From Magnetococcales bacterium DCbin4 (lineage in GTDB: Bacteria > Pseudomonadota > Magnetococcia > Magnetococcales > UBA8363), in assembly GCA_002753735.1 (NCBI GenBank), contig PEAN01000032.1:1-42950 (forward strand): a stretch of DNA of 42,950 nt. The letters are read 5' to 3'. The notes beneath the pieces were generated by a model. It was not told where the DNA came from. It did not search any database and saw only the letters and a list, made by a program, of their open reading frames with translations. Both the position numbers and the translations under genes were made by a program. Below, in pieces: positions 169 to 42,950 of the stretch. Position 1 is the stretch's first letter; each line of letters begins with the position of its first letter.

Positions 169-966
169 TTACTTCTTATTCGTCTCAGGTTTGGCATTCG
201 TAGTCACCTCAGGCTTGGGAGTCGCACCCATCCCAGGCCTGGTCACCGTACTCATATCAAGAGTGACCGCAGTCTGCGCCAGCAGTGCGCCGTTGACCGT
301 TGCTCCAGAGTTCACAGCAATCATGGTTTGCGCAAGTATGTTGCCTTCAAAGTGCGAATGGGCTCCAAGAGACACCGCGCCGGCGACCGCCCAGAAGATA
401 TTTTTGGCTGAGGCGCCACCGACCAGTTTGACTTGCTTAGAGTTGGCCAGATCCAAGGTTTGCGCCACCTGGAAGATCCAGACATCGTCCGGGCCACCTG
501 AAAGCGTGACATCGGTGCTAATCAAAAGTCCCGAACTCCATTTGTAGATGCCTGGAGTGATGGTTCGACCGCCAATCTCTCCGCCACCCAGTTCAGTGGC
601 ATTGGGGGCGGGTCGTCCCGAAGCTTCCGTGTAGGCCCGTTCCATATCGAGTACAGCCGTGGTCAAAAAGCTGGGGTTATTATTCCTACAGGGTAGAGGC
701 CCAGCCTCAGTGACGGTGTAGACCTTCCCCACCACTTCAGCGCAGCTGAGAAGGAGAGCTGCACCAGTAATGGGGCTTGTGCCAACATCGCCAACAACAG
801 AGGATCGATAAACATTGGTGATTCCAGCTTTGCTCAAGATCGCAAAATTTCCAGCAGTGCCCAGATTGACTGGATTCGGACTATTGCCAGCGATGGCGTT
901 GGTACTCACAATCATAAAACCACCAAACATTGCCGCAAGTATTAACATCTTTGAATGCTTATTCAT
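169..966 (-). CDS. DUF3494 (ice-binding-like) secreted protein, copy 1
   Basis: A 265-residue protein with an N-terminal signal peptide (basic MNKHSK, hydrophobic stretch to about residue 26, cleavage near AIAG). The mature part follows the DUF3494 pattern: VNLGTAGNFAILSKAGITN, then VVGDVGTSPITG, then PGIYKWSSGLLIS, then DVWIFQVA, ending in a repetitive hydrophobic stretch (AVNSGATVNGALLAQTAVTL). This family forms a right-handed beta-solenoid; some members bind ice, others are surface or adhesion proteins of unknown role. The C-terminal tail is rich in Pro, Thr, Lys and Asn. It is a close paralogue of the gene at 1173-2009 in the same orientation, so the pair is a tandem duplication. No good ribosome site is visible before the ATG. 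Ice binding itself cannot be claimed from sequence alone. Confidence 0.85.
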   Translation of the reverse strand: MNKHSKMLILAAMFGGFMIVSTNAIAGNSPNPVNLGTAGNFAILSKAGITNVYRSSVVGDVGTSPITGAALLLSCAEVVGKVYTVTEAGPLPCRNNNPSFLTTAVLDMERAYTEASGRPAPNATELGGGEIGGRTITPGIYKWSSGLLISTDVTLSGGPDDVWIFQVAQTLDLANSKQVKLVGGASAKNIFWAVAGAVSLGAHSHFEGNILAQTMIAVNSGATVNGALLAQTAVTLDMSTVTRPGMGATPKPEVTTNAKPETNKK

Positions 967-1140
967 AACTTAAGTTCATTATATCGAATGCGCTTGATAA
1001 TGGCCCGGTTGACGGTCGGGTGATTTACCACGACGGCCATGGACAGTAATTTGGCTGGAGAGTAGGGCTTTAGTCGCGATGTGCTACAATTGTGACCTTG
1101 GCCCTAAACTTCAGAGGATTATTTTTTGCTAGTTGTCAGT

Positions 1141-6670: not shown

Positions 6671-6696
6671 GTCTGGAGAACGGTTCGGAAGAAACC

Positions 6697-6883
6697 ATGA
6701 TCAAGAAAAACAAGGGGTCTGGGGGATTGCCCCCAGGGTTTTGATTTTGGTTTCACATCCCTCACAGAGGGCGGGGGGCAAAGCACCCGGGCTTAACTTA
6801 AGCGTCTTTCACCCCCCCCCGTAGCGCAATCAACACCAAAATCCCGGGGGAAATCCCTCAGACCCTTTTTTTTTCTTGATCAT
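6697..6883. repeat. MITE-like intergenic element, copy B (both ends present)
   Basis: Both ends are long, imperfect inverted repeats of about 50 bp. The left end (6697-6750) reads ATGATCAAGAAAAAC, then AAGGGGTCTGGGGGATT, then GCCCCCAGGGTTTTGATTTT. The right end (6832-6883) is its near reverse complement, ending TTTTCTTGATCAT. The left arm also folds on itself (CTGGGGG-ATTG-CCCCCAG). The middle holds a C9 run (6812-6820). It has no coding capacity and could form one long hairpin in RNA. It fills the gap between the hydrolase and the acyl-CoA ligase. Confidence 0.65.
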
Positions 6884-6908
6884 CATTTCTTTTGACCTGG
6901 GATGCTCC

Positions 6909-8438: not shown

Positions 8439-9326
8439 ATGGCGGTGGCAGACATGATGATGCGCTGGCGTTGGTTGGCATGGGGATTATGGGTTGTGGT
8501 GTTGCTTTCGGGATGTTCATCCACCCAGGATGAGGTCAAGGAAAAGTTTTCCGCCGAACAGTTGTATCGTGAAGGGGTCAAGGCGGTCAAAGCGGGCAGT
8601 TTCAGCCTTGCCATCGAAAAATTCCAGGATGTGGATCGTCAGCATCCGTTTTCTCCCCTGGCCACCCCTTCCCAGCTCAATCTCATCTACGCCCATTACC
8701 GCAAGGAAAATTATGAAGAGTCGGTCTCTGCGGCGGAACGGTTCATCCGCCTCCACCCCCGCCACAAAAACGTCCCCTACGCCTATTACATGCGTGGCCT
8801 GAGTTTCTATCAACGTATTTCCGACGCCTATCGTGATCAGCAACGTTCGCGGGATGCCCTGGTTGCCTTTCGCGAGGTGGTATCGCGTTTCCCCGACAGC
8901 GACTATGCCTGGGAAGCCAAGCGGATGATCAATGTGTGCAAGGATCGGATGGCGGAACAGGAAATGGTCATCGCCCGCTATTATCTGGATCTGGAACAAT
9001 ACATCGCTGCCAACAATCGGTTTCAGCGGGTCTTGCAGGATGCCGATCTCAATACGACGGTCTATGTCGAAGAGGCGTTGTTCAGCCTGGTATTGACCTC
9101 TCTGCGTCTGGGATTGCGTGAAGAGGCGCGCAATCATTCGGCAGTATTGGGACACAACTTCCCTGAAGGGGCGTTCTACAAAAAAGCAATCGCCATGGTG
9201 GAAAAAGGAGAGGACATCAGCCGTTGGGAACTGGCCAGCCTGCGCCAAGGGGTCAAGGAAGGCTCCTTCCTGTCACGTTTCGTCAAGGGCCTTGCACCCG
9301 CCATGCTGCCAGGTGGCGACATGTAG
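8439..9326 (+). CDS. bamD: Outer membrane assembly lipoprotein BamD
   Basis: Essential lipoprotein of the BAM complex, which folds beta-barrel proteins into the outer membrane; it sits on the periplasmic face of the outer membrane. A signal peptide ends in the lipobox LLSGC (lipidated Cys at residue 26). The rest is helical with TPR-like repeats: YREGVKAVKAGSFSLAIEKF, then YRKENYEESVSAAERFIRLH, then ARYYLDLEQYIAANNRFQRV. It also carries the family signature MRGLSFYQRI. The size (295 residues) is slightly above the usual 240-280. The start is uncertain: AAGGA touches the first ATG at 8439, so translation may begin at one of the ATGs at 8454-8462. The signal peptide is intact either way. Confidence 0.88.
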   Translation: MAVADMMMRWRWLAWGLWVVVLLSGCSSTQDEVKEKFSAEQLYREGVKAVKAGSFSLAIEKFQDVDRQHPFSPLATPSQLNLIYAHYRKENYEESVSAAERFIRLHPRHKNVPYAYYMRGLSFYQRISDAYRDQQRSRDALVAFREVVSRFPDSDYAWEAKRMINVCKDRMAEQEMVIARYYLDLEQYIAANNRFQRVLQDADLNTTVYVEEALFSLVLTSLRLGLREEARNHSAVLGHNFPEGAFYKKAIAMVEKGEDISRWELASLRQGVKEGSFLSRFVKGLAPAMLPGGDM

Positions 9327-9656
9327 TTCCAATTTTCCATACAAGCCTTCTTTTAATTTGTCACATGCATCACGGGCTACGGAACGAAATATTCATCCCT
9401 TTTCAGGTTGAGGGACAGAGTTGAAAAACCTATTCCCCCTCAAAACCCCATCCGGCCAGACATTGGACGCAATGGGAGCCAAACTTGACAAATTCCAGTG
9501 GACTGGAAGGGTGGAATCCTGGACACTTTAGACTGTGGAAGAATTGTTTCACCATGGCCCAACATATCCTGGCACCAAGTTTCGAACATCGTGTATCAGG
9601 GTGGTCTGGTGACGTGGGAACTGGGTGCCAGTGGTGACTTGAGGCCAACAGAGATC

Positions 9657-10526
9657 ATGGAAGATCAGAAAGAAAAGAACCGGTCCCAGTACGATACCAC
9701 CCTGAAGGATTTGTTTGAGAAGCCGCCGCAACGATTGTTGCAGATTCTGGTCGGACGGGAAGCGGTAGAACTGTTGCCAGTGGAATTCGCGTCCACCCAA
9801 AAGCGTCTTCCTGATTTATTGTTCTTGCTGAAGGATGATTCGATCTTTCATCTGGAGTTACAAGGCAGCTCCGAGGGCATGGGCTGGCGCATGCTGATGT
9901 ATTACTCGTTAATCCGTCAGCGTTATCCGAACAGAATCCTGGTTCAGAAGGTGCTGTACGTCGGGTTTAAGGAGTGGCAGCCCGGATCGGTCATTGAAGA
10001 GCAGAATTTATCCTTCCGTTACGAGGTGGTTGACATCCGCAGTATCGACTGTCGGGAGCTGTTGGAGAGCCCGTCTTTGGAGGAAAACATCCTGGCCATC
10101 CTTTGTCGGATTGACAACCAGAAAGAGGTGATCCAGGAAATCTTGTACCGAATCAGTGAACTGCCGATCAAAGCCAGGGCGGATGCCCTGACAAGGTTGG
10201 TCATCTTATCCAGGTTGCGCAGACTGGAAACGGTTGTCAAAGCGGAGGCTGAGGAAATGTCACTGACCTTCAACGTCATGGAAAACGATGTGCTGCGGCC
10301 TTTGTTCATGAAGGCACAGATGGATAGTGAGCAGAAAGGCGAGCAGCGAGGCGAACAGAAAGGCGAGGCTAAAATTTTAACTCGCCAACTGCAACGCCGC
10401 TTTGGCAGCGTACCCGATTGGGCCAGCGAGAAGATTGCCAAGGCAGATCTCTCCTCTTTGGAGGAATGGAGCCTTCGCATCTTCGATGCCCAGTCCCTGG
10501 ATGAAGTTTTCTCGGATAAGGTGTGA
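9657..10526 (+). CDS. Rpn-family nuclease/putative transposase with DUF4351 C-terminus (copy A)
   Basis: A 289-residue protein of the Rpn family, PD-(D/E)XK nucleases linked to recombination. The N-terminus QYDTTLKDLFEKPPQRLLQI and the core KRLPDLLFLLKDD...FHLELQ provide the expected Asp and the ExQ variant of the nuclease site. A Glu/Gly/Lys-rich linker (EQKGEQRGEQKGE) precedes a C-terminal DUF4351 segment (LTRQLQRRFGSVPDW to SLRIFDAQSLDEVF). I start it at 9657 because family members begin near the QYDTTLK motif; an in-frame ATG at 9498 would add 53 residues that look random. The last 29 codons and the 3' flank are repeated at 13543-14242, and the same C-terminus occurs in the genes at 41368 and 42655. 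Confidence 0.78.
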   Translation: MEDQKEKNRSQYDTTLKDLFEKPPQRLLQILVGREAVELLPVEFASTQKRLPDLLFLLKDDSIFHLELQGSSEGMGWRMLMYYSLIRQRYPNRILVQKVLYVGFKEWQPGSVIEEQNLSFRYEVVDIRSIDCRELLESPSLEENILAILCRIDNQKEVIQEILYRISELPIKARADALTRLVILSRLRRLETVVKAEAEEMSLTFNVMENDVLRPLFMKAQMDSEQKGEQRGEQKGEAKILTRQLQRRFGSVPDWASEKIAKADLSSLEEWSLRIFDAQSLDEVFSDKV

Positions 10527-10536
10527 TGTGACCAAG

Positions 10537-10584
10537 AAAATTTTCGGCGAATTCTTCCGGTAACCGGTCGATACCCAATGCGAG
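10537..10584 (+). repeat. Conserved 3' flank of rpn genes, copy A
   Basis: Directly after the rpn stop lies a block resembling TTTTCGGCGAATTCTTCCGG followed by TAACCGGTCGATACCCAATG. The same block, with a few changes, follows the rpn fragment at 13637-13684 and the minus-strand rpn genes at 41309-41358 and 42595-42644. Its core includes the palindrome ACCGGT inside GGTAACCGGTCGATACC. Confidence 0.7.
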
Positions 10585-10778
10585 CTTTTTCTTTCCGTGA
10601 ATATGAGTGCATACGAAAGTTAATTTTCACAACCATATAGCAACCTTTTCGACTCCAATTCGCCTACCGAGGCGGATTCGGAATTTCTCCCTGCTACGTC
10701 GCAACCAAAACGGGGAATCATTTGAAACAAGGTACACTCGGTCCACCATTTTGAATGTGAAGGTTTTCTTCGTCTGCC

Positions 10779-10803
10779 GCCGCCCTTCGGGGCGGCTTTT
10801 TTT
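10779..10803 (+). terminator. Rho-independent terminator in direct repeat copy 1
   Basis: A perfect 7-bp stem with a stable TTCG loop (GCCGCCC-TTCG-GGGCGGC) is followed by seven T residues. It ends whatever is transcribed from the rpn gene or from a start inside the non-coding module. Confidence 0.85.
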
Positions 10804-11182
10804 GTACTACAAATATCACAAATATTTTCAATTGTTACGCGTAATGGTTAGAAAATGCATTTGGTTAAATTTTGGACTTGCATGAGTCGAAATGGGCGGA
10901 TATTATTCTCTCCACGGCGCAATTCTCCAAAACCCGTGGACCGGCCCCATGTGCGTCCGGAAATCCCGGACCCACTTAACGGTATGATGTTTTTAGAATA
11001 TCATTGATTCCTGATGCTGGACTGGTTCGAAGTGGAACTCGGTTGGTGAGAATGGAGGGAGTATTCGAACTTAGGTCCGGGTAGTTCTATGGCGCCTTTG
11101 ATTGTTGGGTTAATGGATATACTTTCCCCATATTTTCCGTGAAACGTCAGAATAATAACATCTTGAAACGGTTGGATATGCC

Positions 11183-12136
11183 ATGCTCCCAATACCATCA
11201 GCCATCGGTGCCGCAAAAAAAGTTATCGAGATTGGTCTGCCCGTCGTTAAAGGAGCGGCTAGAATTGGCTTCAGGTTTCTCCAAGGTGGTGTTCATGCTG
11301 TTGTAAATGATGGAGAACCAACGGAGTCTTCTCCGGATGCAAAAAGAGAACAAGCACTGATGTCCCTCAAAATCTCACAGCGACTTGAAGCCATTGAAAA
11401 TGGGCTGAGTGTTCAAGCCTGCTTCAGCAAAAACCAGTTTTGGGCTCTCAGGGAGGAGATCAAGGAACAATTGAATGTTCTCAAAGGGCAAAATGAAGTT
11501 AATTTCCTTTCCCAATCCATCCAATATTTCATCAATAGTCATCAGGGACGGGCAGGAGTGGACCGTTCCGTCTCCTATGCCCTTCAATACGACATTAACA
11601 GTGTGATTGATCATATAAAACGAGAGAGTGATGTCAGACTTCCTGGCTACTTGATCCACCAATGCGCCAGTTTGGCTGCAACCGTGAAGGATATGAACAT
11701 CTTTTATAGTACGGTCTTGCGAAATGGCAGAGTAAAGTTTGTTGACTATTCCGATGTAAAGGGTGAGTTGGACCAATGCGTTGGCACGGATGGCCGCCGG
11801 AAGAAGTTCAGTGGATACATCCCTTTTGAACACAAACTTCGGTATGTCAGGGAGAAAGAGGATTCGGTTGAAGCTCGAAGTTCGAGTTCTTTCCCCCTGA
11901 CGACCATCAGTGACAGGATGAATGCTTTCTGGAAGGGTAATAGCTCTAAAGAGTCTGAGCGAAAGAATGACTCCTGGGAGTTTGTGGCCGAACTGGCAAA
12001 ATCGAGCAATCCCAACAACGAGGTGCTGTACATACTTCGTGAGGAGCTCATGGACAACGAGGAGTTGGAAATGGAGATCGCTGGGATGATCGAAACCATG
12101 CCGGAGAGGAGAATTCTGATTGAAAGTGATGCCTGA
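11183..12136 (+). CDS. Uncharacterised 317-residue cargo protein
   Basis: I do not recognise this protein. The N-terminus (residues 1-40) is amphipathic with glycine and alanine, including AAKKVIEIGLPVVKGAARIG, which could be a membrane-active or buried helical segment but is not a signal peptide. The middle is mixed helical (about residues 60-180) with conserved-looking aromatic positions. The C-terminus is acidic (ELMDNEELEMEIAGMIE). There is no recognisable catalytic motif, Walker motif, zinc site or clear transmembrane helix. It begins about 40 bases after direct repeat copy 1, exactly as the unrelated DUF1643 gene does after copy 2. Its base composition is more AT-rich than the core genes. 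It is plausibly a mobile accessory or defence gene, but only context suggests this. Confidence 0.6.
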   Translation: MLPIPSAIGAAKKVIEIGLPVVKGAARIGFRFLQGGVHAVVNDGEPTESSPDAKREQALMSLKISQRLEAIENGLSVQACFSKNQFWALREEIKEQLNVLKGQNEVNFLSQSIQYFINSHQGRAGVDRSVSYALQYDINSVIDHIKRESDVRLPGYLIHQCASLAATVKDMNIFYSTVLRNGRVKFVDYSDVKGELDQCVGTDGRRKKFSGYIPFEHKLRYVREKEDSVEARSSSSFPLTTISDRMNAFWKGNSSKESERKNDSWEFVAELAKSSNPNNEVLYILREELMDNEELEMEIAGMIETMPERRILIESDA

Positions 12137-12212
12137 TCATTCCCTCTCTCAGAGGCAAACCCTGGATAAATTCATGCCACTTGCATAAAATCCGAAAAAA
12201 TTACGAAAATAC

Positions 12213-12268
12213 GTGGACACCATACCAATTAAATTTATCTCCATAAGTGAAATAGGTAAGGTGTCCCC
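12213..12268. repeat. REP-like palindromic element
   Basis: An inverted pair, GTGGACACCATACC at 12213-12226 and GGTAAGGTGTCCCC at 12255-12268, encloses a short AT-rich loop (AATTAAATTTATCTCCATAAG...). The same arms recur at 13408-13531 and in the array at 14871-15142. Similar sequences are, from memory, widespread REP-type elements associated with REP-associated tyrosine transposases; no such transposase is in this window. Confidence 0.65.
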
Positions 12269-12461
12269 AGATTTCCCAGGGCTATTGACAAAGCTACATT
12301 TTTAGAATACGGTCTTGCCTGGGTTACCCGCCCATGCCGTCCACCCTGGCGAAGCCTTCGGGGCAGGGGTTCTCTCCTCAAATCTATTCCTGGCACTTTC
12401 TTTTTACGGCGCACAGGACCCAGTGGACACGTCTCCGCATGCGCCAAAAAGGAGAATCGCC

Positions 12462-13427
12462 ATGCGTCTTTTTTTCCCCAACCAGACACGCCCGAAGAAA
12501 GCTGCCAGACAACTTTCTTTACACTTCAACGAACAACTCTCCACTTGCCAAAAGGCGGTAGCGCAAGCCTGCGGTTACAGGGATTGGCATGAGATGGAGC
12601 GTAGCCATTCGGCTGAAGCGCCATCCCCTCTTGACCAGGCTTTGAGTGTCGTGGGCTTCCGGTCCCGAACAGCCGATATCTGCAAAACGCTCTCGACAGT
12701 TCTGGGTGTTGCGGATGGGGACATTCAAGCCGCCCTCCCCACGGTCCGACTCACAGGAGACAGGCCCTACACCTTGGAAGATCATCACGCAATTCGAATT
12801 CTCTGCTGGCGAAGCGGCCCTATGCCTTGGCTTGGGAAAGGCAAGCCCGGGGAGGTCTTTCTCATCGATGATAAGGCAAGTTCATTGATGGAAAGGGGAG
12901 ATCCTCCTTCCCGAGCCTTTAGGAAACAGTCCAATGGAAGTGGTGTCTTTTTCTGCTCGGATACGACAACGGGAGGCATCTGTGCGACCGATGAAACCGC
13001 TTCCCCCATTATCCGCCTGGACGACTTCATCCCGCTTAGGCTGTGGCTGCCTTATGGATGGTGGACATTGATGGATGGCAGTGAAGTCCTGTTTTCTCGG
13101 GACTACAAACCTCTCTGGAAATTTGATCCCAATGGTGGCGTTGAAAGGATAAACCCTTCAACTTGGATCACAGAGATCGCGAATCAACATTATTATCAGG
13201 AAGAAAAGGGTGGCGGGTGGTACACCGAATTGGCATCTCAAGCCGCCAAGGAACGATTGCGCAGACATAAAATCTCTGCATTGCCTCGACTTGTAGACGC
13301 ACTCCCGTTGCTTGTTGCCAATGGCAAGTTAGAGGTAGGGGATGCGGCTCAAATCCTTGATGGGAATAACCCGCGAAATCCGGGGAAATCCGGAAACCCG
13401 GAAATCCGGGGACACCATACCAATTAA
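12462..13427 (+). CDS. Uncharacterised accessory protein with 'GYRDWHE' N-terminus
   Basis: A 321-residue protein if it starts at 12462, where AAGGAG precedes the ATG at suitable spacing; the 49 extra upstream codons from 12315 are not credible. The N-terminus has a short helical module (KKAARQLSLHFNEQLSTCQKA, then CGYRDWHEME at about residues 37-46) of a type I associate with plasmid and genomic-island hypothetical proteins. The middle is rich in Trp, Gly and Asp without a known motif. The last ~20 residues (NPRNPGKSGNPEIRGHHTN) are encoded by the REP-like repeats at the 3' end, and the stop codon itself lies in the repeat. The native C-terminus has therefore probably been replaced. The gene is bracketed by REP-like elements on both sides. 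Confidence 0.55.
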   Translation: MRLFFPNQTRPKKAARQLSLHFNEQLSTCQKAVAQACGYRDWHEMERSHSAEAPSPLDQALSVVGFRSRTADICKTLSTVLGVADGDIQAALPTVRLTGDRPYTLEDHHAIRILCWRSGPMPWLGKGKPGEVFLIDDKASSLMERGDPPSRAFRKQSNGSGVFFCSDTTTGGICATDETASPIIRLDDFIPLRLWLPYGWWTLMDGSEVLFSRDYKPLWKFDPNGGVERINPSTWITEIANQHYYQEEKGGGWYTELASQAAKERLRRHKISALPRLVDALPLLVANGKLEVGDAAQILDGNNPRNPGKSGNPEIRGHHTN

Positions 13428-13531
13428 ACCCGGAAATCCGGGGACACCATACCAATTAAATTTATCGCCATAAGTGAAATAGGTAAGGTGTCCCCAGATT
13501 TCCCCATAAGTGAAATAGGTAAGGTGTCCCC
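13408..13531. repeat. REP-like cluster: two forward and two inverted arms
   Basis: GGGGACACCATACC occurs at 13408-13421 and 13440-13453, and the inverted arm GGTAAGGTGTCCCC at 13482-13495 and 13518-13531, each pair with its AAATCCGGGG or CCCCAGATTTCCC flank. The cluster supplies the stop codon of the gene ending at 13427. It runs directly into the rpn fragment that begins direct repeat copy 2. Confidence 0.75.
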
Positions 13532-13545
13532 AGATTTCCCAAGCA

Positions 13546-13626
13546 GATCTGTCCTCTTTGGAGGAGTGGAGTCTCCGCATCTTCGATGCCCAGTCCCTGG
13601 ATGAAGTTTTCTCGGATAAAGTCTGA
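13546..13626 (+). pseudogene. rpn/DUF4351 C-terminal remnant
   Basis: The reading frame ADLSSLEEWSLRIFDAQSL followed by DEVFSDKV and a stop is identical in protein sequence to the end of the gene at 9657-10526, with several synonymous base changes (for example GAATGGAGCCTT versus GAGTGGAGTCTC). It has no start or nuclease domain. The silent differences show either that selection acted after duplication or that this end came from a different intact copy. Confidence 0.8.
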
Positions 13627-13636
13627 TGTGACCAAG

Positions 13637-13684
13637 AAAATTTTCGGAAAGTTCTTCCGGTAACCGGTCGATACCCAATGCGAG
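13637..13684 (+). repeat. Conserved 3' flank of rpn genes, copy B
   Basis: Same block as at 10537-10584, with GGAAAGTTC in place of GGCGAATTC; the core CCGGTAACCGGTCGATACCC is unchanged. Confidence 0.7.
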
Positions 13685-13878
13685 CTTTTTCTTTCCGTGA
13701 ATATGAGTGCATACGAAAGGTAATTTTACAACCATATAGCAACCTTTTCGACTCCAATTCGCCTACCGAGGCGGATTCGGAATTTCTCCCTGCTACGTCG
13801 CAACCAAAACGGGGAATCATTTGAAACAAGGTACACTCGGTCCACCATTTTGAATGTGAAGGTTTTCTTCGTCTGCCG

Positions 13879-13901
13879 CCGCCCTTCGGGGCGGTTTTCT
13901 T
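13879..13901 (+). terminator. Rho-independent terminator in direct repeat copy 2
   Basis: CCGCCC-TTCG-GGGCGG is followed by TTTTCTTT. The outermost G-C pair of copy 1 is lost, but the six-base stem and the T-rich tail are kept. Confidence 0.75.
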
Positions 13902-14265
13902 TGCGCTACAAATATTATCATTATCTTCAATGGTTACGCTTAATGGTTAGAAAATGCATTTGGTTAAATATTGGACTTGCAGGAGTCGAAATGGGCGGAT
14001 ATTATTCTCTCCACGGCGCAATTCTCCAAAACCCGTGGACCAGCCCCATGCGTGTCCGGAAATCTCGGACCCACTAAACGGTATGATGTTTTGAGAATAT
14101 CATTAATTCCTGATGCTGGACTGATTCGATGTGGAACTCGGTTGGTGAGAATGGAGGGAGGATTCGAACTTGGGTCCGGGTAGTTCTATGGCACCTTTGA
14201 TTGTTGGATTAATGGATATACTGTCCCCATATTTTCACTGAACTTAATGATTTTGGATACATTGT

Positions 14266-14790
14266 ATGGTCTATAAATATAAACACCGTCCAAATTTATC
14301 TGTGAAAGCAGATTTTTCTCCTGAAGGCGTTCCTGTTTTCCGTTACCGACTTGAAATAACAAAAAAAAATAATGCAAATAAATCCTCAAAAACTGTTTGC
14401 GCAATCATGCAAAATCCCAGTTACGCTAGAGAAGAATATGCAGATAGATCTGTTCAGGTATTAGAAAGAGTCGTTTTTGAACATGGATTGAAAGAATTTG
14501 AGGGTGCTGTGCGTTTGATCGTTGTTAATCTATTTGCTTATATCAAAACCAATAATTTTGTTGGAACAGATGCGGAAATCGGTAGTAAGAATAATGATGT
14601 AATATCAAAAGCATTTAAGGAATCAAATATTATCCTTATTGCCTGGGGAAAATCTAATCATTTTACTAAAAGAAAAGATTACGTTACTAGCCTTATTAAA
14701 AATATGGAGGATAAAACAATACTGGAAACTAGCTGTCATCCATCAAGAGTGAAGTATGATGATTTTATTCAACCGTTCAAATTTCAATGA
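14266..14790 (+). CDS. DUF1643 family protein
   Basis: A 174-residue protein matching DUF1643: RYRLEITKKN, then CAIMQNPSYA, then DRSVQVLERVVFEHGL, then VVNLFAYIKT, and near the end CHPSRVKY. The family's biochemical role is not known; members are often carried on mobile elements. It is strikingly AT-rich compared with the core genes, with many AAT, AAA and ATA codons, a clear sign of recent transfer. It starts about 24 bases after direct repeat copy 2, whose leader it probably uses. No ribosome site is obvious. A T9-G11 homopolymer junction follows the stop. Confidence 0.8.
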   Translation: MVYKYKHRPNLSVKADFSPEGVPVFRYRLEITKKNNANKSSKTVCAIMQNPSYAREEYADRSVQVLERVVFEHGLKEFEGAVRLIVVNLFAYIKTNNFVGTDAEIGSKNNDVISKAFKESNIILIAWGKSNHFTKRKDYVTSLIKNMEDKTILETSCHPSRVKYDDFIQPFKFQ

Positions 14791-14796
14791 AAGTTA

Positions 14797-14816
14797 TTTT
14801 TTTTTGGGGGGGGGGG
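14797..14816. repeat. T9-G11 homopolymer junction
   Basis: Nine T residues are followed directly by eleven G residues, just after the DUF1643 stop. It is prone to slippage in the cell and to miscounting by sequencers; no coding frame crosses it. Confidence 0.8.
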
Positions 14817-14870
14817 AATTCCTGGAATTCCGGTAGAGTAGAGAACTGGCGTGCCAACTGTATGGGGGCG

Positions 14871-15147
14871 TGAATCTGGGAATCTGGGGGGAATCTGGGG
14901 ACACCATACCTATTCTGGGGAATCTGGGGACACCATACCTATTTCCTTTATTGGGAATCTGGGGAATCTGGGGAATCTGGGAATCTGGGGACACCATACC
15001 TATTTCCTTTATGAATCTGGGAATCTGGGGACACCATACCAATCTGAATCTGGGAATCTGGGGACACCATACCAATCTGGGAATCTGGGGACACCATACC
15101 TATTTCCTTTATGGCTGTAAAATTAATCGGTATGGTGTCCCCAGATT
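14871..15147. repeat. REP-like array with GAATCTGGG satellite
   Basis: Six forward copies of GGGGACACCATACC lie at 14897-14910, 14926-14939, 14987-15000, 15027-15040, 15060-15073 and 15087-15100, and one inverted copy GGTATGGTGTCCCC at 15129-15142. Between them, tandem GAATCTGGG units (up to four in a row near 14953-14990) and TATTTCCTTTAT spacers recur. Distances between copies are irregular (27-61 bases) and the intervening sequence is itself repetitive. Confidence 0.85.
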
Positions 15148-15216
15148 TATAGATTGCGATAACCTTCCAAGTCGTGATAATAAAATTGTGCTGTGTCACC
15201 TAATTTTGGATTTTAA

Positions 15217-15648
15217 ATGAAACAATTACGAATAACGTTTTGCGCTATTGCGTGCTTCGCCTGGAGTGGTCATGTGCAAGCCAATGACTTTCCTTCTTCA
15301 TCACACCAATTTACGTCACCACCGCTGGAGGCGCGTTTTGAAATCTTACAGTCCCAGCTGGCTGCAAGGTGGACATTCCGTCTTGACAGATATTCGGGGC
15401 GTATTTGGCAATTGGTAATAACGAGCGACGGCGACAGCACATGGGAAGAAATGCCAGTGATGGGCTTGCCAAAGGGGCAAGCTACTGCTCTTCCCCATTT
15501 CCAGATATTTACATCAGGTCTTGCCGCTCGCCACACATTCCTGATCGACAACGATACCGGAAAGACATGGGTTTTGATTTCAAGAAAACTGAACAATAAA
15601 GACGGAACCGTACATGAAACAAATAGCTGGGAGCTTTTTGCTGACTAG
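15217..15648 (+). CDS. Small secreted protein with two internal repeats
   Basis: A 143-residue protein with a signal peptide (MKQLRITFCAIACFAW, cleavage near VQA-ND). The mature part holds two similar blocks. The first is ARFEILQSQLAARWTFRLD followed by RYSGRIWQLV (about residues 39-67). The second is PHFQIFTSGLAARHTFLID followed by NDTGKTWVLI (about 93-121). Each looks like a beta-hairpin unit ending in a D-x-x-[ST]G-[KR]-x-W-x-L/V turn, common in small secreted proteins of unknown function. It stands alone downstream of the REP-like array. No function is proposed. Confidence 0.65.
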   Translation: MKQLRITFCAIACFAWSGHVQANDFPSSSHQFTSPPLEARFEILQSQLAARWTFRLDRYSGRIWQLVITSDGDSTWEEMPVMGLPKGQATALPHFQIFTSGLAARHTFLIDNDTGKTWVLISRKLNNKDGTVHETNSWELFAD

Positions 15649-15924
15649 CAGCCTGTCGGATTTGGTATATTTACCTATAAATATAAAGTTATTAATTTAT
15701 TAACAAAAGAATAATTCTGGTCGGCGACAATCGGGAATACGGGAAAAAGGGCGAATCTACCCTCTATTACCCATCATCTATCTGTTTATTCAGCCATGGC
15801 AACCTTCAGAACCGCCATTCGGCGTATATTCCAGGCAAGACTTACCCATTGCCATTCGCCCAGCACCTTGTCCAACCCTCGACGCATGGAAATCTGGGGA
15901 CAGTATCTCCATTTCCAAAAATCA
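15649..15924. other. Intergenic region, no gene seen
   Basis: It lies between two convergent genes. A degenerate relative of the REP-like arm (AATCTGGGGACAGTATCTCC) is at about 15890-15909. No terminator of standard form was found. Confidence 0.4.
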
Positions 15925-16461
15925 TCATACTCCGGTCGCAAATTGGACATGCATCGGATCAGGAGTGTGGAATTTACGTCCATTATGCCAACCGTGTTCC
16001 TTCCAAATGTCAAACCACCACTGCGGTAACGTGCATGTCAACGGATTCTTCCTGGGATTATGGATGGGATCCCAATCGATTGCGATACCAAAAGAGTGCA
16101 AGGAAGGTTCTACGCCACCCCGCTTGGGACGAAAATTGTAACCGCCCCCGTGAATATCCAACCGACGTTCGTGCAACCAGGCTCGCACAGTCTCATCATT
16201 AGACTGCCTTCCAACCTCATTGAGCGCGTGTTGCCAAACATCCCTCAAAACACTCTGAAAACTTCCCTCCAGAAATCGATGCATGCGAATCCCTGAAACC
16301 TTAACTAATGCATCATCCATTTGATAATAAAGTTGCCACCCTGCTGGAGGGGTGATTTTTTTGATGTGTTCCTTCTCCCAAATAGCATTCACCGTCCCGT
16401 CCCTCAAACCCGGATTCCCAAACATTCGTTTTATTTCATCATATCCATTCGGCGTTTTCAT
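15925..16461 (-). CDS. M15-type peptidase, phage-endolysin-like (VanY/L-Ala-D-Glu peptidase group)
   Basis: A 178-residue zinc peptidase that would cut peptide cross-bridges of peptidoglycan. The M15 ligand pattern is complete: H122 and D129 in SLHSFGIAIDWDP, and H171 in DPMHVQFATG. The extra Trp-rich segment (TLPQWWFDIWKEHGWHNGRK) fits the phage endolysin-like subgroup. There is no signal peptide, as is usual for phage lysins that need a holin. No phage gene lies nearby, so it may be a relic or a domesticated enzyme. AGGGA precedes the ATG on the minus strand. It is transcribed away from metX, sharing the 340-base region between them. Confidence 0.75.
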   Translation of the reverse strand: MKTPNGYDEIKRMFGNPGLRDGTVNAIWEKEHIKKITPPAGWQLYYQMDDALVKVSGIRMHRFLEGSFQSVLRDVWQHALNEVGRQSNDETVRAWLHERRLDIHGGGYNFRPKRGGVEPSLHSFGIAIDWDPIHNPRKNPLTCTLPQWWFDIWKEHGWHNGRKFHTPDPMHVQFATGV

Positions 16462-16799
16462 CGTATTTTCCCTGTAGATGGCAATATATATGATCCCCCT
16501 TCGGGGCGATTCAACAGCAATACAGCTCTACATGTTCACTTCGCACTCCAATTGGGAACATGACAGGCTCAAAACCCTGCGATTCGGAAGGGCCACAATC
16601 ACCAAACCCTGTGGAACATGGCATACGATCAAATATAACATTGAAATAGTAATATCTTACACACATCATTTAAATGATTTTGATTATGACATTGCCCCCA
16701 TCAAAATTCACCATTCGAGACGTTTCGTCAATGAATTTCATCTTCAAATGAACAGAACGCACCGGGATTGGACAACCCCTTGACTCCAGGGAAAAATGG
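16462..16799. other. Divergent promoter region between the M15 peptidase and metX
   Basis: It contains a short CCCCTTCGGGG hairpin (about 16496-16506) and AT-rich stretches. I looked for SAM or SAH riboswitch features ahead of metX and could not support one. Confidence 0.4.
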
Positions 16800-20872: not shown

Positions 20873-20953
20873 ATGATCAAAAGAAAAAATGGGGCTGGGG
20901 GATTGCCCCCAGGGTTTGGATTTTGATCCTCTTCCCGAAGGGCATCATGTTGT
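20873..20953. repeat. MITE-like intergenic element, copy C (left half)
   Basis: It starts with the terminal sequence ATGATCAAAAGAAAAAATGG, the internal hairpin CTGGGGG-ATTG-CCCCCAG (20895-20912), then GGGTTTGGATTTTGAT, and CCCGAAGGGCATCATGTTG shared with copy A. The right terminal repeat is not found before oadA. The hairpin may also help end the metX-hisG transcript. Confidence 0.6.
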
Positions 20954-31958: not shown

Positions 31959-34856
31959 TCAATCCAGGTTACGAATACGCTCAATCTCTTCGCGGACGAT
32001 CTCCTCCACCAGATCGGGCAACAGCCGCTGCAACATGGAGGCAACCATTTCCCGAACCATTTCCTCCACACGACCGCCATATGATTCCTCCAACGATCCG
32101 GAAGACAGCGGCTGGCCTCCACCCTCCTCCTCTTCGGCCAATCGAGACGCGGGCTCATTCGCCAACCCCACCAGGGATGCCAACCCGGAAACCTCCTGAA
32201 GCCGTGCCTCCCGTGGATCTCCCTTCTCCTCCGGAGCCGCTTCAATCAAAGTGCCACCACCTTCTTCCCCTTCCGCCTCCCCCTGCAACCGATCCGGTGC
32301 CCCCCCGGCATCTTCCAACCCCGATCCTTCTCCAGTTCCAACGACGGAAAGCGACGGCTGTGCCCCCGTAGTCGCCTCCAGGGAAACCTCCTCCTCAAGG
32401 AGACCCGGTTCTTCCCCTTCCTCCAAACCTTCCTCTTCTTCGACCACCTCTTCTTCCAAACCTGCCGCTTCTCCGACCGATTCTTCCTCCTCGGAGTCTT
32501 CCTCTTCCCCGACCGCCTCTTCTCCCTCCAAATCTTCCTCTTCTCCGACCGGTTCTTCCTCCTCGGAGTCTTCCACTTCCCCGGCCACTTCTCCCTCCTC
32601 CAAATCTTCCTCTTCTTCGACCGCCTCTTCTGCCTCCAAACCTTCCTCTTCCCCAGCCACTTCTTCTTCCTCGGAGTCTTCCCCTTCACCAACCGTCACT
32701 TCTTCCTCAGGGTCTTCCCCTTCCCCAACCGCCTCTTCTTCCTCGGTATCTTCCTCTTCCCCGATGGCCTCTTCTTTCACCAAACCTTGCTCTTCTCCGA
32801 TGGCCTCTTCTTCCTCGGAGTCTTCCCCTTCACCAACCGTCACTTCTTCCTCGGTATCTTCCTCTTCCCCGATGGCCTCTTCTTTCACCAAACCTTGCTC
32901 TTCTCCGATGGCCTTTTCTTCCTCGGAGTCTTCCCCTTCCCCGACCGCCTCTTCTTCCTCGGTATCTTCCTCTTCCCCGATGGCCTCTTCTTCCTCGGAA
33001 TCTTCCTCTTCCCCGACCGCCTCTTCTTCCTCGGTATCTTCCTCTTCCCCGATGGCCTCTTCTTCCTCGGTGTCTTCCTCTTCTCCGATGGCCTCTTCTT
33101 CCTCGGAATCTTCCTCTTCCCCGACGGCATCTTCCTCCTCGGAATCTTCCTCTTCCCCGATGGCCTCTTCTTCCTCGGTGTCTTCCTCTTCCCCGATGGC
33201 CTCTTCTTCCTCGGTGTCTTCCTCTTCCCCGATGGCCTCTTCTTCCTCGGCGTCTTCCTCTTCCCCGATGGCCTCTTCTTCCTCGGAATCTTCCTCTTCC
33301 CCGATGGCCTCTTCTTCCTCGGCGTCTTCCTCTTCTCCAATGGCCTCTTCTTCCTCGGAATCTTCCTCTTCCCCGATGGCCTCTTCTTTCACCAAACCTT
33401 GCTCTTCCCCGATGGCCTCTTCTTCCTCGGAATCTTCCTCTTCCCCGACCGCCTCTTCTTCCTCGGAATCTTCCCCTTCCCCGACCGCCTCTTCTTCCTC
33501 GGTGTCTTCCTCTTCCCCGATGGCCTCTTCTTCCTCGGAATCTTCCTCTTCCCCGACCGCCTCTTCTTCCTCGGTGTCTTCCTCTTCCCCAACCGCCTTT
33601 TCTTCCTCGGAGTCTTCCTCTTCTCCGATGGCCTCTTCTTCCTCGGAGTCCTCCCCTTCCCCAACCGCCTCTTCTTCCTCCAAATCTTCCCCTTCCCCAA
33701 CCGCCTCTTCTTCCTCCAGATCTTCCTCTTCTCCGATGGCCTCTTCTTCCTCGGAAATGACCTCTTCCCCGACAAGATCCGATTTCTCAGCCCGTTCTTG
33801 AGCCAAAAGAGACCCACCACCTTCCAATGATTCACTTGCTTCATCCAGGAAAGCAGCATCCTCCTCACTGGCTTCTTCAAGAGAAACAACCTGGTCCATG
33901 ACTTCGTCGAGGAGTCCCTCTTCTTCACCCTCCGCCAATTCTGAAACCAGATCCCCTTCCAGGTCGGAATCCAGATCTTGACTCAATGGGGTATCATTTT
34001 CGTCCTCGGTCAATTCAGGGAGAACCTCTTGCATTCCCTCTTCAGATTCTTCCAGAAGCTGGGTACGTACTTCCTCAGCAGGCTCAGGAATGAAGGTCGC
34101 TCCGTTCTCGACGGAACCCTTCTGGACCGAAGCCGGTCGTCCCGTAACCTCCGCAATATGTTCAAGCGGCAGGGGTAATTCTTCATCCTCAAGCAGATCA
34201 AGGTCTTCTTCTCCATCTGCATCGAGCAACGACGGCACGTCTTCTTCATCATCCAGCAGCGCTAATTCCTCATCCTCCAAAGTACCATCGAGCAACAATG
34301 ATTCTTCATGAGTTGCATCAGGCGACACAGACGCCTCTTCGTCCGGTCCCCCTTCGGACGCCTCCAGCGAAACCGCATCCCCCTCATCTTCCAGGAGATG
34401 CGCTTGCTCTTCATCCCGTGAGGAATTCAGCACGGCAGCGATATTCACCGGCGTCGGGAAATCGATTTCCATACCCGTCAGATCGAGGACATCCTCCTCT
34501 TCCTCGACCACCGCTGGTGGCGCACCTGCGCCGGACGCATCCACGGAAGGGGGAACCACCGCTTCCGGGATGACCGTTTCCGACTTCAAATTTTGAGGGA
34601 GGAACTCCGAGGTGTTCTCTTCGATACCTTCCCCGTCAAGCATGCTTTCCAGGGAATTCAAAACTTCTTCCATGGAGGGTACCGCAGCACCATCGACCGG
34701 AAGCGCCCCGGGGATCAGATCCATTGATTCCGAGGACTTCGGTGTGAGGCTGTCCGCCAGATTCACCTTTTTCAATGAAGTTTTTTTTTGTGAAGGGGCT
34801 TCTGTTTTATTGGCGGCTTTGACCGCTTTGGGTTTTTTGTCCTTGGTACTGGCCAT
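31959..34856 (-). CDS. popZ: PopZ-like pole-organizing protein with giant acidic repeat linker (DUF2497)
   Basis: A 965-residue, extremely acidic protein. Near the N-terminus it has PSMEEVLNSLESMLDGEG (residues 60-77), matching the PopZ/DUF2497 helix EPSMEEILASIRxII. The last 40 residues (926-965) contain RVEEMVREMVASMLQRLLP and DLVEEIVREEIERIRNLD, matching the C-terminal oligomerisation helices. PopZ forms condensates at the cell pole and anchors chromosome-segregation proteins. In Caulobacter PopZ has 177 residues with an acidic, proline-rich linker of under 100. Here the linker is about 850 residues, with about 36 tandem 12-residue units of the type SEEEEAIGEEED (about residues 365-797). 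A basic N-terminal tail (residues 1-35) precedes the first helix. The neighbour is valS, as in other alphaproteobacteria. An acidic repeat protein of another kind, such as a MamJ-like scaffold, is the alternative, but the two end motifs favour PopZ. Confidence 0.75.
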   Translation of the reverse strand: MASTKDKKPKAVKAANKTEAPSQKKTSLKKVNLADSLTPKSSESMDLIPGALPVDGAAVPSMEEVLNSLESMLDGEGIEENTSEFLPQNLKSETVIPEAVVPPSVDASGAGAPPAVVEEEEDVLDLTGMEIDFPTPVNIAAVLNSSRDEEQAHLLEDEGDAVSLEASEGGPDEEASVSPDATHEESLLLDGTLEDEELALLDDEEDVPSLLDADGEEDLDLLEDEELPLPLEHIAEVTGRPASVQKGSVENGATFIPEPAEEVRTQLLEESEEGMQEVLPELTEDENDTPLSQDLDSDLEGDLVSELAEGEEEGLLDEVMDQVVSLEEASEEDAAFLDEASESLEGGGSLLAQERAEKSDLVGEEVISEEEEAIGEEEDLEEEEAVGEGEDLEEEEAVGEGEDSEEEEAIGEEEDSEEEKAVGEEEDTEEEEAVGEEEDSEEEEAIGEEEDTEEEEAVGEGEDSEEEEAVGEEEDSEEEEAIGEEQGLVKEEAIGEEEDSEEEEAIGEEEDAEEEEAIGEEEDSEEEEAIGEEEDAEEEEAIGEEEDTEEEEAIGEEEDTEEEEAIGEEEDSEEEDAVGEEEDSEEEEAIGEEEDTEEEEAIGEEEDTEEEEAVGEEEDSEEEEAIGEEEDTEEEEAVGEGEDSEEEKAIGEEQGLVKEEAIGEEEDTEEEVTVGEGEDSEEEEAIGEEQGLVKEEAIGEEEDTEEEEAVGEGEDPEEEVTVGEGEDSEEEEVAGEEEGLEAEEAVEEEEDLEEGEVAGEVEDSEEEEPVGEEEDLEGEEAVGEEEDSEEEESVGEAAGLEEEVVEEEEGLEEGEEPGLLEEEVSLEATTGAQPSLSVVGTGEGSGLEDAGGAPDRLQGEAEGEEGGGTLIEAAPEEKGDPREARLQEVSGLASLVGLANEPASRLAEEEEGGGQPLSSGSLEESYGGRVEEMVREMVASMLQRLLPDLVEEIVREEIERIRNLD
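32470..33765 (-). repeat. 36-bp tandem repeat array inside the PopZ-like gene
   Basis: About 36 units of 36 bp, each coding 12 residues ([SLTA]EEEEA[IV]GE[EG]ED), run head to tail. The plus strand is almost entirely pyrimidine (CTCTTCTTCCTCGGAATCTT...), so the coding strand is a purine-rich tract over a kilobase long. A rarer variant unit pair (EEQG-LVKEEAIG) occurs three times with the same neighbours, pointing to duplication of multi-unit blocks. Units near both ends are more divergent than those in the middle. Confidence 0.9.
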
Positions 34857-41308: not shown

Positions 41309-41358
41309 GTTCGCTTCGGGTATCGACTGGTTACCGGAAAAACTTGCAGAAAAATCTC
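41309..41358 (-). repeat. Conserved 3' flank of rpn genes, copy C
   Basis: Reading on the minus strand after the rpn stop at 41368: GAGATTTTTCTGCAAGTTTT, then TCCGGTAACCAGTCGATACC, then CGAAGCGAAC. This is the same block that follows the rpn genes at 10526 and 42655, with about a dozen changes. Confidence 0.65.
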
Positions 41359-41367
41359 CACAGTCCA

Positions 41368-42420
41368 TCACGCATTGTCCAAGAAAACGTCGTCCAGAGA
41401 CTGGGCATCGAAGATGCGAAGACTCCATTCCTCCAAGGATTGAAGATCGGCCTTGGAAATTTTTTCGTTTGCCCAATCGGATACGGTGCCGAAGCGGCGT
41501 TGCAATTGGCGCATCAACATTGATGCAGCTTCTTTCTGTCGTCCTTCCTGCAGACCTTCCTGTCGTCCTTCCTGCAGACCTTCCTGTCGTCCTTCCCATT
41601 TACCAGCACCATAGGTCGAGAGTACAAAACTTGCCTGGTCATGAAGTTCTTCCTGATAGCGTTCGTAGGCCCTGCGCTCTGGCTCTGGCAATTGCAGGAC
41701 ATCAAGCTTTTCTTTGGCCTCTTTCAGGCCACGGGCCGTAAAATCATCACGAATATCAGAGTTTTTCAAGAAATAGACCCACTCGTCCAGGGTATCTCGG
41801 GCGACATCATCGAAATTTCTTACTTTGATCAAGTAATGCTCTGGAAAAATAGCGGCTACCGAAGGTCGTTGAAACAAAGCCTTTTGCCCCTCGTCCAAGG
41901 CCAGTTCTTCATGGGTGTGCAACCCCCTGAAAGAGGTATTGCCCACATAGACATAATCGCTGCCACGCCCCAGATCAAAATAGAGAATGCTGATGGTGAC
42001 GACCTTGATCACACTGGCGTAAGGCTTGCCTTCCGTCATGTGTTCGGTGATGGCCTTGGCGGTACTGAAGAGTAACCTCTGTAGATAATCCCACTCTCGT
42101 TCGTATTGCAACTCAACGATGATGATTTCATCCCGGGTGTTTTTGATCTTGAGATCGACACGGTTGAATTTATCGTTACGGGCTTCCTGATTACTTTCGC
42201 TCTCCAGGATTTCAACGATGCGCACATCCTCGCGAAGAAGTTCGGTGAGGAACCCTTCCAGGATTTCAAAATTGGCCTTGCTGCGCAGCAGGCGTTTCAA
42301 GGCCCAGTCGAAGCTGACCAACTGCCGTTGTTTCACCTTTTTGGCCCTCCGCAAAAACTGATCAACCTTCAACTTCAACATCGAGCATTCATCAAGGATC
42401 CATGATCGCCTTTTTGCCAT
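41368..42420 (-). CDS. PD-(D/E)XK nuclease-family transposase-like protein with DUF4351-type C-terminus (copy C)
   Basis: About 350 residues. The head differs from that of the 9657 gene: it has SFDWALKRLLRSKANFEILE, then LLREDVRIVEILESESNQE, with the nuclease site in RVDLKIKNTRDEIIIVELQY (Asp, then Glu-x-Gln). This matches the PDDEXK_2 (TIGR01784-like) group. After an Arg/Gln/Glu/Gly repeat (EGRQEGLQEGRQEGLQEGRQ, coded by 30-bp DNA repeats near 41535-41600) it ends with LMRQLQRRFGTVSDWANEKI, then SLRIFDAQSLDDVF, nearly identical to the C-terminus of the other copies. The start is uncertain: 42450, 42420 or 42381; none has a good ribosome site, and 42420 is listed. Confidence 0.75.
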   Translation of the reverse strand: MAKRRSWILDECSMLKLKVDQFLRRAKKVKQRQLVSFDWALKRLLRSKANFEILEGFLTELLREDVRIVEILESESNQEARNDKFNRVDLKIKNTRDEIIIVELQYEREWDYLQRLLFSTAKAITEHMTEGKPYASVIKVVTISILYFDLGRGSDYVYVGNTSFRGLHTHEELALDEGQKALFQRPSVAAIFPEHYLIKVRNFDDVARDTLDEWVYFLKNSDIRDDFTARGLKEAKEKLDVLQLPEPERRAYERYQEELHDQASFVLSTYGAGKWEGRQEGLQEGRQEGLQEGRQKEAASMLMRQLQRRFGTVSDWANEKISKADLQSLEEWSLRIFDAQSLDDVFLDNA

Positions 42421-42594
42421 GATAAATAAATCAAAATCCTGGCCGCACACCTTCCAAACGGCATGCCGAACCCGTTTTGACCTTCAAATGGAGGTCATCG
42501 CCTTGTGCCATCGACGCCTCCCACGTACTCGGCACAACATCCAGTTTTGCCCTTTTCATGGCCAGATGGATCAGAAGGGACGCGGAGAGATGAA
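42421..42594. other. Gap between the two right-hand rpn-type genes
   Basis: Short intergenic region with no gene; the conserved rpn 3' flank (copy D) begins at its right end. Confidence 0.4.
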
Positions 42595-42644
42595 GTTCGC
42601 TTTGGGTATCGGTCGGTTACCGAAAGAATTCGCCGAAAAATCTC
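42595..42644 (-). repeat. Conserved 3' flank of rpn genes, copy D
   Basis: On the minus strand after the stop at 42655: GGAGATTTTTCGGCGAATTC, then TTTCGGTAACCGACCGATAC, then CCAAAGCGAAC. It is closest to copy A, keeping CGGCGAATTCTT. Confidence 0.65.
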
Positions 42645-42654
42645 CTTGGTCGTA

Positions 42655-42950
42655 TCATTGCTCATCCGCGAAGATATCGTCCAAAGACTGGGCATCGAAG
42701 ATGCGGAGGCTCCACTCCTCCAAGGATGACAGGTCCGCTTTGGCAATCTTCTCGTTTGCCCAGTCGGGTACGGTACCGAAGCGGCGTTGCAATAGGCGCG
42801 TCAGCATTGATGCGCCTTCTTCCTGGCGGCCTTCACGCTTCCATTCTTTCGTCCATTCGCCAACAGTCTCGGCCAGCATGGCATCTACCTCCTGCAAATC
42901 ATTCAACTCCGGGATTGCCTGCCCAGGAACCCGCCTGGGCAACAACACGC
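42655..42950 (-). CDS. Rpn-family protein, C-terminal part (partial, runs off right edge)
   Basis: The frame is open to the window edge, so the nuclease head lies outside. The visible part has a family-typical segment (PELNDLQEVDAMLAETVGEW followed by TKEWKREGRQEEG) and then the shared C-terminus LTRLLQRRFGTVPDWANEKI and SLRIFDAQSLDDIF. The segment before the linker differs from both other genes, so this is a third type of head joined to the same tail. The ATG near 42948 is unlikely to be the true start. Confidence 0.7.
   Translation of the reverse strand, partial: VLLPRRVPGQAIPELNDLQEVDAMLAETVGEWTKEWKREGRQEEGASMLTRLLQRRFGTVPDWANEKIAKADLSSLEEWSLRIFDAQSLDDIFADEQ

What the first reader, a model, noticed from the sequence alone, without database searches (positions are those of the whole stretch)
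10440..14242. Duplicated ~700-bp leader module, each copy feeding a different cargo gene
Copies at 10440-11143 and 13543-14242 keep the rpn 3' end and about 600 non-coding bases. Each ends 24-40 bases before the start codon of an unrelated accessory gene (317-aa unknown; DUF1643). That looks like a modular expression or insertion platform: constant leader, variable cargo, with an rpn tail at its upstream border. Duplication by REP-mediated recombination is the simpler explanation for two copies, but not for the two different cargos at the same boundary.
Basis: partly seen in the sequence, partly recalled or inferred. Interest (0 to 1): 0.7.

Follow-up and report, generated by a model that had tools for sequence, protein, structure and literature searches.

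The report
Tandem tRNA-site cassettes carrying defence genes
The repeated 700-base stretch is the seam between neighbouring mobile DNA cassettes: an order-wide, prophage-associated family that inserts at the ends of tRNA and tmRNA genes in Magnetococcales bacteria and carries a different accessory gene, often of antiphage-defence type, in each copy.

Summary
The duplication is real: 10432-11143 and 13532-14242 are 94% identical over 712 bp. It is not a local oddity. The conserved core (10740-11081, about 343 bp) occurs in 36 of 48 Magnetococcales genomes, 1-9 copies each. Of 85 catalogued copies, 38 begin exactly at the encoded CCACCA end of a tRNA or tmRNA gene. A further 23, including both window copies, begin at a conserved 65-nt half-site that also ends in CCACCA. 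Where a serine-recombinase operon lies within 15 kb downstream, it always faces the core (27 of 27). In the tested members this operon heads a tailed prophage. Cargo, largely of conflict or defence type, sits between core and operon. An rpn tail lies 89-428 nt before 23 of 29 half-sites, so rpn is the usual right-end gene. The window holds a tandem array: [..rpn-half-site] | [core-317 aa gene-..-rpn tail-half-site] | [core-DUF1643..]. One 2.65-kb cassette is caught between tRNA-Ile and tRNA-Ala, uninterrupted in other genomes. Integration by the recombinase is inferred, not shown.

The parts
9498..10526 (+). rpn-family gene (DUF4351 C-terminal domain); right-end gene of the upstream cassette (cassette 0). 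A likely true start is the ATG at 9654.
   Evidence: PF14261 E=6.5e-9. An rpn/DUF4351 tail lies 89-428 nt before 23 of 29 half-sites order-wide.
10680..10748 (+). Right-end half-site ('P-half') of cassette 0, ending in CCACCA (10743-10748).
   Evidence: Aligned with 33 other upstream sequences and recovered by profile.
10740..11081 (+). Left-end core (about 343 bp) of cassette 1.
   Evidence: Profile hit E=2e-100; alignment A1; begins at tRNA/tmRNA CCACCA in 38 of 85 copies.
10779..10796 (+). Terminator-like hairpin at the start of the core; would end transcription of an upstream tRNA or tmRNA gene.
   Evidence: Stem columns 42-60 of A1 carry both-side changes that keep pairing.
11082..11143 (+). 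Extra sequence shared only by the two window copies, up to the cargo junction.
11183..12136 (+). Cargo gene of cassette 1, 317 aa, no family match.
12204..12277 (.). REP-like inverted-repeat element inside cassette 1.
   Evidence: family D4.
12471..13427 (+). Second ORF of cassette 1, 318 aa, no family match.
13431..13540 (.). REP-like repeats abutting and replacing the 5' part of the second rpn copy.
13532..13626 (+). Truncated rpn tail, right end of cassette 1.
   Evidence: 94% identical to 10432-10526.
13779..13847 (+). Right-end half-site of cassette 1, CCACCA at 13842-13847. The CCACCA-to-CCACCA unit is 3,099 bp.
13839..14180 (+). Left-end core of cassette 2.
   Evidence: Profile hit E=3e-100.
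14181..14242 (+). Second copy of the 62-bp extension to the cargo junction.
14266..14790 (+). Cargo gene of cassette 2, DUF1643, 174 aa.
   Evidence: PF07799 E=1.1e-18.
14870..15151 (.). REP-like array after cargo 2. No right-end half-site was found downstream in the window.

Best explanation
The module is the seam between two tandem integrated cassettes. A cassette reads: CCACCA | 343-bp left end | cargo gene(s) | usually an rpn gene | 65-nt right half-site | CCACCA. Autonomous relatives carry a DUF2924/large-serine-recombinase/P133 operon that faces the left end and heads a tailed prophage, with the cargo in the slot between left end and operon. Site-specific recombination at the CCACCA that ends tRNA and tmRNA genes places an element right after the tRNA. 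A later element can use the CCACCA at an existing cassette end, giving tandem arrays. Short cassettes without a recombinase, as in this window, are most likely deletion derivatives or satellites that keep both ends. They would be mobilised by a relative's recombinase or be frozen in place, comparable to cis-mobilisable elements. Shown: repeat anatomy, exact tRNA/tmRNA register, half-sites, recombinase orientation, cargo diversity, one occupied locus against uninterrupted loci elsewhere. Inferred: that this recombinase performs the reaction, that CCACCA is the crossover core, that cassettes still move.
For: Core begins in register with the CCACCA of tRNA (25: Met, Ala, Lys, Ile, Val) or tmRNA (13) among 85 copies; 23 more begin at the half-site. 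The recombinase within 15 kb is convergent in 27 of 27. Members with no cargo have about 28-60 bp between the core and P133 (L223, L226, L229, L234). The recombinase matches phage integrase phrog_95 (E=1e-113) and its neighbours are terminase, portal and tape measure. Cargo differs at nearly every locus. rpn precedes 23 of 29 half-sites. L156: tRNA-Ile CCACCA | 2.65-kb cassette | CCACCA spacer tRNA-Ala; the pair is uninterrupted in about 22 genomes. In the window's own genome, tmRNA (C99) and tRNA-Ala (C109) each carry a core followed by rpn, and C109 continues into a second core.
Against: No recombinase of this family was found in the window's genome, so current mobility is doubtful. No right-end half-site was found for the tRNA-anchored prophages in stretches of 17-79 kb, so their right ends are unmapped. 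The window array does not abut a tRNA; it lies between bamD and metX, which are not linked in relatives, so no clean empty site could be shown there. About 23 of 85 copies have an unclassified upstream, some of them cut or degenerate. Most sequences are fragmented MAGs.
Confidence: 0.8

Rival explanations
1. A conserved regulatory leader or non-coding RNA downstream of tRNA/tmRNA genes that drives expression of whatever follows; the cargo turnover is a by-product.
For: In 31 of 52 full-length copies with enough downstream sequence, a sense ORF of 80 aa or more starts within 150 nt of the core end. Strong primary conservation across the order, and a terminator hairpin with compensatory changes.
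Against: Consensus fold weak (-17.5 kcal/mol, covariation -1.3) and window RNA z=-1.4. Promoter scan 7 versus 4.2+/-1.7 in shuffles. Some cores have no cargo but run straight into the antisense P133/recombinase operon. The same short half-site precedes the seam copies.
Confidence: 0.1
2. A simple local duplication by REP/RAYT or homologous recombination, with cargo swapped by gene conversion; no site-specific system.
For: REP-like repeats flank the second copy and truncate its rpn. RAYT-like ORFs follow cargo in several relatives.
Against: The same core sits at tRNA/tmRNA ends in dozens of copies without REP at that border. The left boundary is CCACCA, not a REP. It can still explain the 94% identity of the two window copies.
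Confidence: 0.07
3. Rpn is the mobilising nuclease of the recombinase-less cassettes, not just a right-end passenger.
For: Rpn tail next to 23 of 29 right half-sites; Rpn proteins are DNA endonucleases reported to contribute to RecA-independent transfer (PMC5350276, title and abstract).
Against: Rpn act as antiphage toxin-antitoxin genes and are described as not conventional transposases (PMC10327210). Six half-sites lack a detected rpn (one had too little upstream sequence to test), and the window's second rpn is truncated. rpn tails are abundant elsewhere in the genome without the module.
Confidence: 0.07

Closest known systems
ssrA genomic islands of Dehalococcoides (DsiB serine recombinase), PMC3146451
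   Same: Tandem islands at tmRNA, CcrB-like serine recombinase on the reverse strand near the left end, variable cargo, many modules without the recombinase proposed as cis-mobilisable elements.
   Different: Those insert in the T-loop with a 20-bp ssrA repeat and only at ssrA. Here the border is the terminal CCACCA of several tRNAs and tmRNA, the constant left end is about 343 bp, the operon is DUF2924-REC-P133 of a tailed prophage, and rpn marks the right end.
CIME / tandem accretion of ICEs and IMEs (reviewed in PMC5704250)
   Same: Elements that lost integration genes but keep both attachment sites and lie in tandem with related elements.
   Different: Helper here is a prophage-type serine recombinase; excision or transfer has not been observed.
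SCC/SCCmec cassettes (CcrA/B/C)
   Same: Serine-recombinase cassettes with variable cargo at a fixed gene end; CcrB is the best NCBIfam match of the recombinase (169 bits against a cutoff of 900).
   Different: Different target, different gene set, well below the membership cutoff.
WO-type prophages of Wolbachia (large serine recombinase with DUF2924; PMC11376236)
   Same: Large serine recombinase next to a DUF2924 gene at the edge of the prophage core, accessory modules alongside.
   Different: The passages read there describe no tRNA CCACCA-bounded 343-bp left end or rpn right end.

Membership tests
tRNA/tmRNA-targeted integrative element (genomic island) | One end abuts the 3' end of a tRNA/tmRNA gene in exact register | tested here: met
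   38 of 85 copies.
tRNA/tmRNA-targeted integrative element (genomic island) | Far end marked by a repeat of the target end | tested here: inconclusive
   Met for the L156 cassette (CCACCA at both ends) and for the window unit; not found for tRNA-anchored prophages in stretches up to 79 kb.
tRNA/tmRNA-targeted integrative element (genomic island) | Cognate integrase present in at least some members | tested here: met
   Convergent serine recombinase in 27 copies; none in the window's genome.
Cis-mobilisable element (CIME) | Keeps both attachment ends but lacks integration genes | tested here: met
   Window unit 10743-13847 and L156 have both ends and no recombinase; that the ends still work as attachment sites is not tested.
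Cis-mobilisable element (CIME) | Mobilised together with, or by, a related element | not testable with these tools
   Needs excision or transfer assays.
SCC cassette | ccr recombinase above the curated cutoff and insertion at rlmH | tested here: not met
   169 bits versus cutoff 900; targets are tRNA/tmRNA.
Integron gene cassette | attC recombination site and tyrosine integrase IntI | not tested
   No dedicated attC or IntI search was run. The associated recombinase has serine-resolvase domains and the conserved border is CCACCA.
Tailed prophage (autonomous relatives) | Terminase, portal and tape measure downstream of the recombinase | tested here: met
   G018 (three loci), G006, G020 and G025; terminase only in G033, where the stretch ends.

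The most novel reading that the evidence does not exclude
An active, order-wide cassette system: prophage serine recombinases load a constant-ended defence-gene slot, and recombinase-less rpn-tailed cassettes are picked up, chained and exchanged at CCACCA seams across many different tRNA genes, working as an integron-like store of defence genes, with Rpn taking part in mobilisation or maintenance.
Probability: 0.2. Interest if true: 0.8.

Novelty: new variant of a known kind. Interest (0 to 1): 0.55.

Why it matters
It turns an unexplained repeat into a marker for a mobile-element family across a whole order. The core and half-site profiles locate accessory genes that are likely defence systems, including uncharacterised ones such as the 317-aa gene. 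It also ties rpn genes, whose spread is poorly understood, to a definite position in a mobile element, and offers a serine recombinase family that seems to accept many tRNA ends, which would be testable and possibly useful as a tool.

Tried and rejected
Rfam scan of 9000-16500: only sub-threshold hits, microRNA-type on the REP palindromes and sRNA-type on the terminator hairpin. Search for long direct repeats of the tRNA 3' end downstream: nothing convincing in the 8-20 kb and 17-79 kb stretches. Conserved RNA structure as the main explanation: rejected on a weak consensus fold. The constant 2.3-kb block after the cargo first looked like a right boundary but proved to be the recombinase gene block only. 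Viral contig scans with core and half-site patterns: no hits. Empty site for the window itself: bamD and metX lie on separate contigs in relatives. G022 versus G031 at rpoD-tRNA-Met looked like an empty/occupied pair, but the shared gene also follows a core elsewhere (L170), so it may be cargo. One region request and one PHROG call failed on wrong coordinates and were repeated correctly.

Full report
1. Observation. The two copies are real and strongly alike: 10432-11143 and 13532-14242, 94% identity over 712 bp. The similarity starts inside the 3' end of rpn and ends 40 and 24 nt before two unrelated ORFs, a 317-aa protein without family match and a DUF1643 protein. In the same genome a third near-full copy (C30, 80%) precedes a third unrelated gene, and partial copies lie on C92, C99 and C109.

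2. Distribution. With the non-coding part as query, 30 of 61 relatives match. With a consensus of the core, 36 of 48 genomes of the order match, 1-9 copies each. A degenerate pattern from the core scanned against about 85,000 species genomes hit 29 contigs, all Magnetococcales. IMG/VR has none.

3. Left border. Alignment of copies showed that the conserved core starts at CCACCA. ARAGORN placed complete tRNA-Met genes, other tRNAs and tmRNA with that CCACCA as their 3' end. A census of 85 copies gives 25 at tRNA ends (Met, Ala, Lys, Ile, Val), 13 at tmRNA ends, 23 at the half-site described next, 23 unclassified and 1 at a contig edge. The unclassified set includes some cut or degenerate tmRNA ends. 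The core opens with a terminator-like hairpin whose stem keeps pairing through changes on both sides, sensible for an element that displaces a tRNA gene's own terminator (inference).

4. Right border and the seam. The sequence before the core in the non-tRNA copies is itself conserved, about 65 nt ending in CCACCA. The same half-site also occurs without a core after it, at L158 and L156. In L156 a 2.65-kb cassette lies between tRNA-Ile and tRNA-Ala, with CCACCA at both ends; in about 22 other genomes the two tRNAs are uninterrupted. So half-site plus core is read as the seam of two tandem units. In the window the unit runs from the CCACCA at 10743 to that at 13842, 3,099 bp. An rpn/DUF4351 tail ends 89-428 nt upstream of 23 of 29 distinct half-sites, which explains why the repeated module carries an rpn tail. 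The family members are related, so the 23 are not independent.

5. The recombinase. After the cargo, several loci share a convergent gene block: a serine recombinase (Resolvase, Recombinase and zinc-ribbon domains), a DUF2924 protein and a 133-aa protein here called P133. Searched across the order and mapped against cores, the recombinase within 15 kb downstream is convergent in 27 of 27 cases. In four loci there is no cargo, only about 28-60 bp between the core and P133. Behind the operon lie terminase, portal and tape-measure genes in G018 (three loci), G006, G020 and G025, and a terminase in G033: these are tailed prophages. The window's own genome has no such recombinase at the threshold used.

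6. Cargo. Slot genes include DUF1643, CyanoTRADDas_TM, protein kinase, EAL, HEPN/Toprim, DuOB with DUF488 and mSLOG, FRG, caspase and DUF2441; the genes before seams include DSR2-type SIR2 (PADLOC E=8e-185), nSTAND3 and rpn. Most of these are known from conflict or defence systems (established knowledge). Function was not tested.

7. Mechanism, with status of each step. Shown: constant ends, register with tRNA/tmRNA CCACCA, tandem seams, convergent phage-type recombinase, cargo slot, one occupied locus against uninterrupted loci. Inferred: the recombinase joins half-site plus core to the tRNA end; tandem arrays arise when an incoming element uses the end of a resident one; recombinase-less units are deletion derivatives or satellites. 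Not shown: present activity, the exact crossover, the right ends of the prophages, and any regulatory role of the core.

8. Known relatives. The ssrA islands of Dehalococcoides (PMC3146451) are closest in behaviour: tandem, serine recombinase near the left end, variable cargo, modules lacking the recombinase proposed as cis-mobilisable. CIME accretion is reviewed in PMC5704250. WO prophages carry a large serine recombinase and DUF2924 (PMC11376236). Rpn proteins are toxin-antitoxin antiphage proteins (PMC10327210). Literature searches found no description of this family, but the library is partial.

9. Verdict. A new variant of a known kind: tandem tRNA/tmRNA-end cassettes of prophage origin or association, with a distinctive constant left end and rpn right end, restricted in the data seen to Magnetococcales.

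Noticed in passing
window 12204-12277, 13431-13540, 14870-15151: REP-like palindromic repeats (GGGGACACCATACC and complement) in arrays; RAYT-like ORFs follow cargo in several relatives (L066, L067, L071).
   Followed up: partly
window 32405-33773: Long internal tandem-repeat region with copies about 77-86% alike.
   Followed up: no
window 173-972 and 1216-2015: An 800-bp direct duplication, 82% identical.
   Followed up: no
window 41309-41562 and 42583-42834: Two more rpn tails on the minus strand without the non-coding module; about 20 rpn tails are scattered over the genome.
   Followed up: partly
window 6689-6891: A 200-bp self-complementary stretch, 70%; part of it recurs at 20873-20925.
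   Followed up: no
L067 (G027:C2:1-13000): Two rpoD-tRNA-Met-core units 6.7 kb apart with different cargo in one contig.
   Followed up: partly
L139 (G023:C89:48500-55500): An inverted pair of 260-bp cores about 3 kb apart.
   Followed up: no
window 14805-14816: Long poly-G run just after the DUF1643 gene; possible assembly weak point.
   Followed up: no
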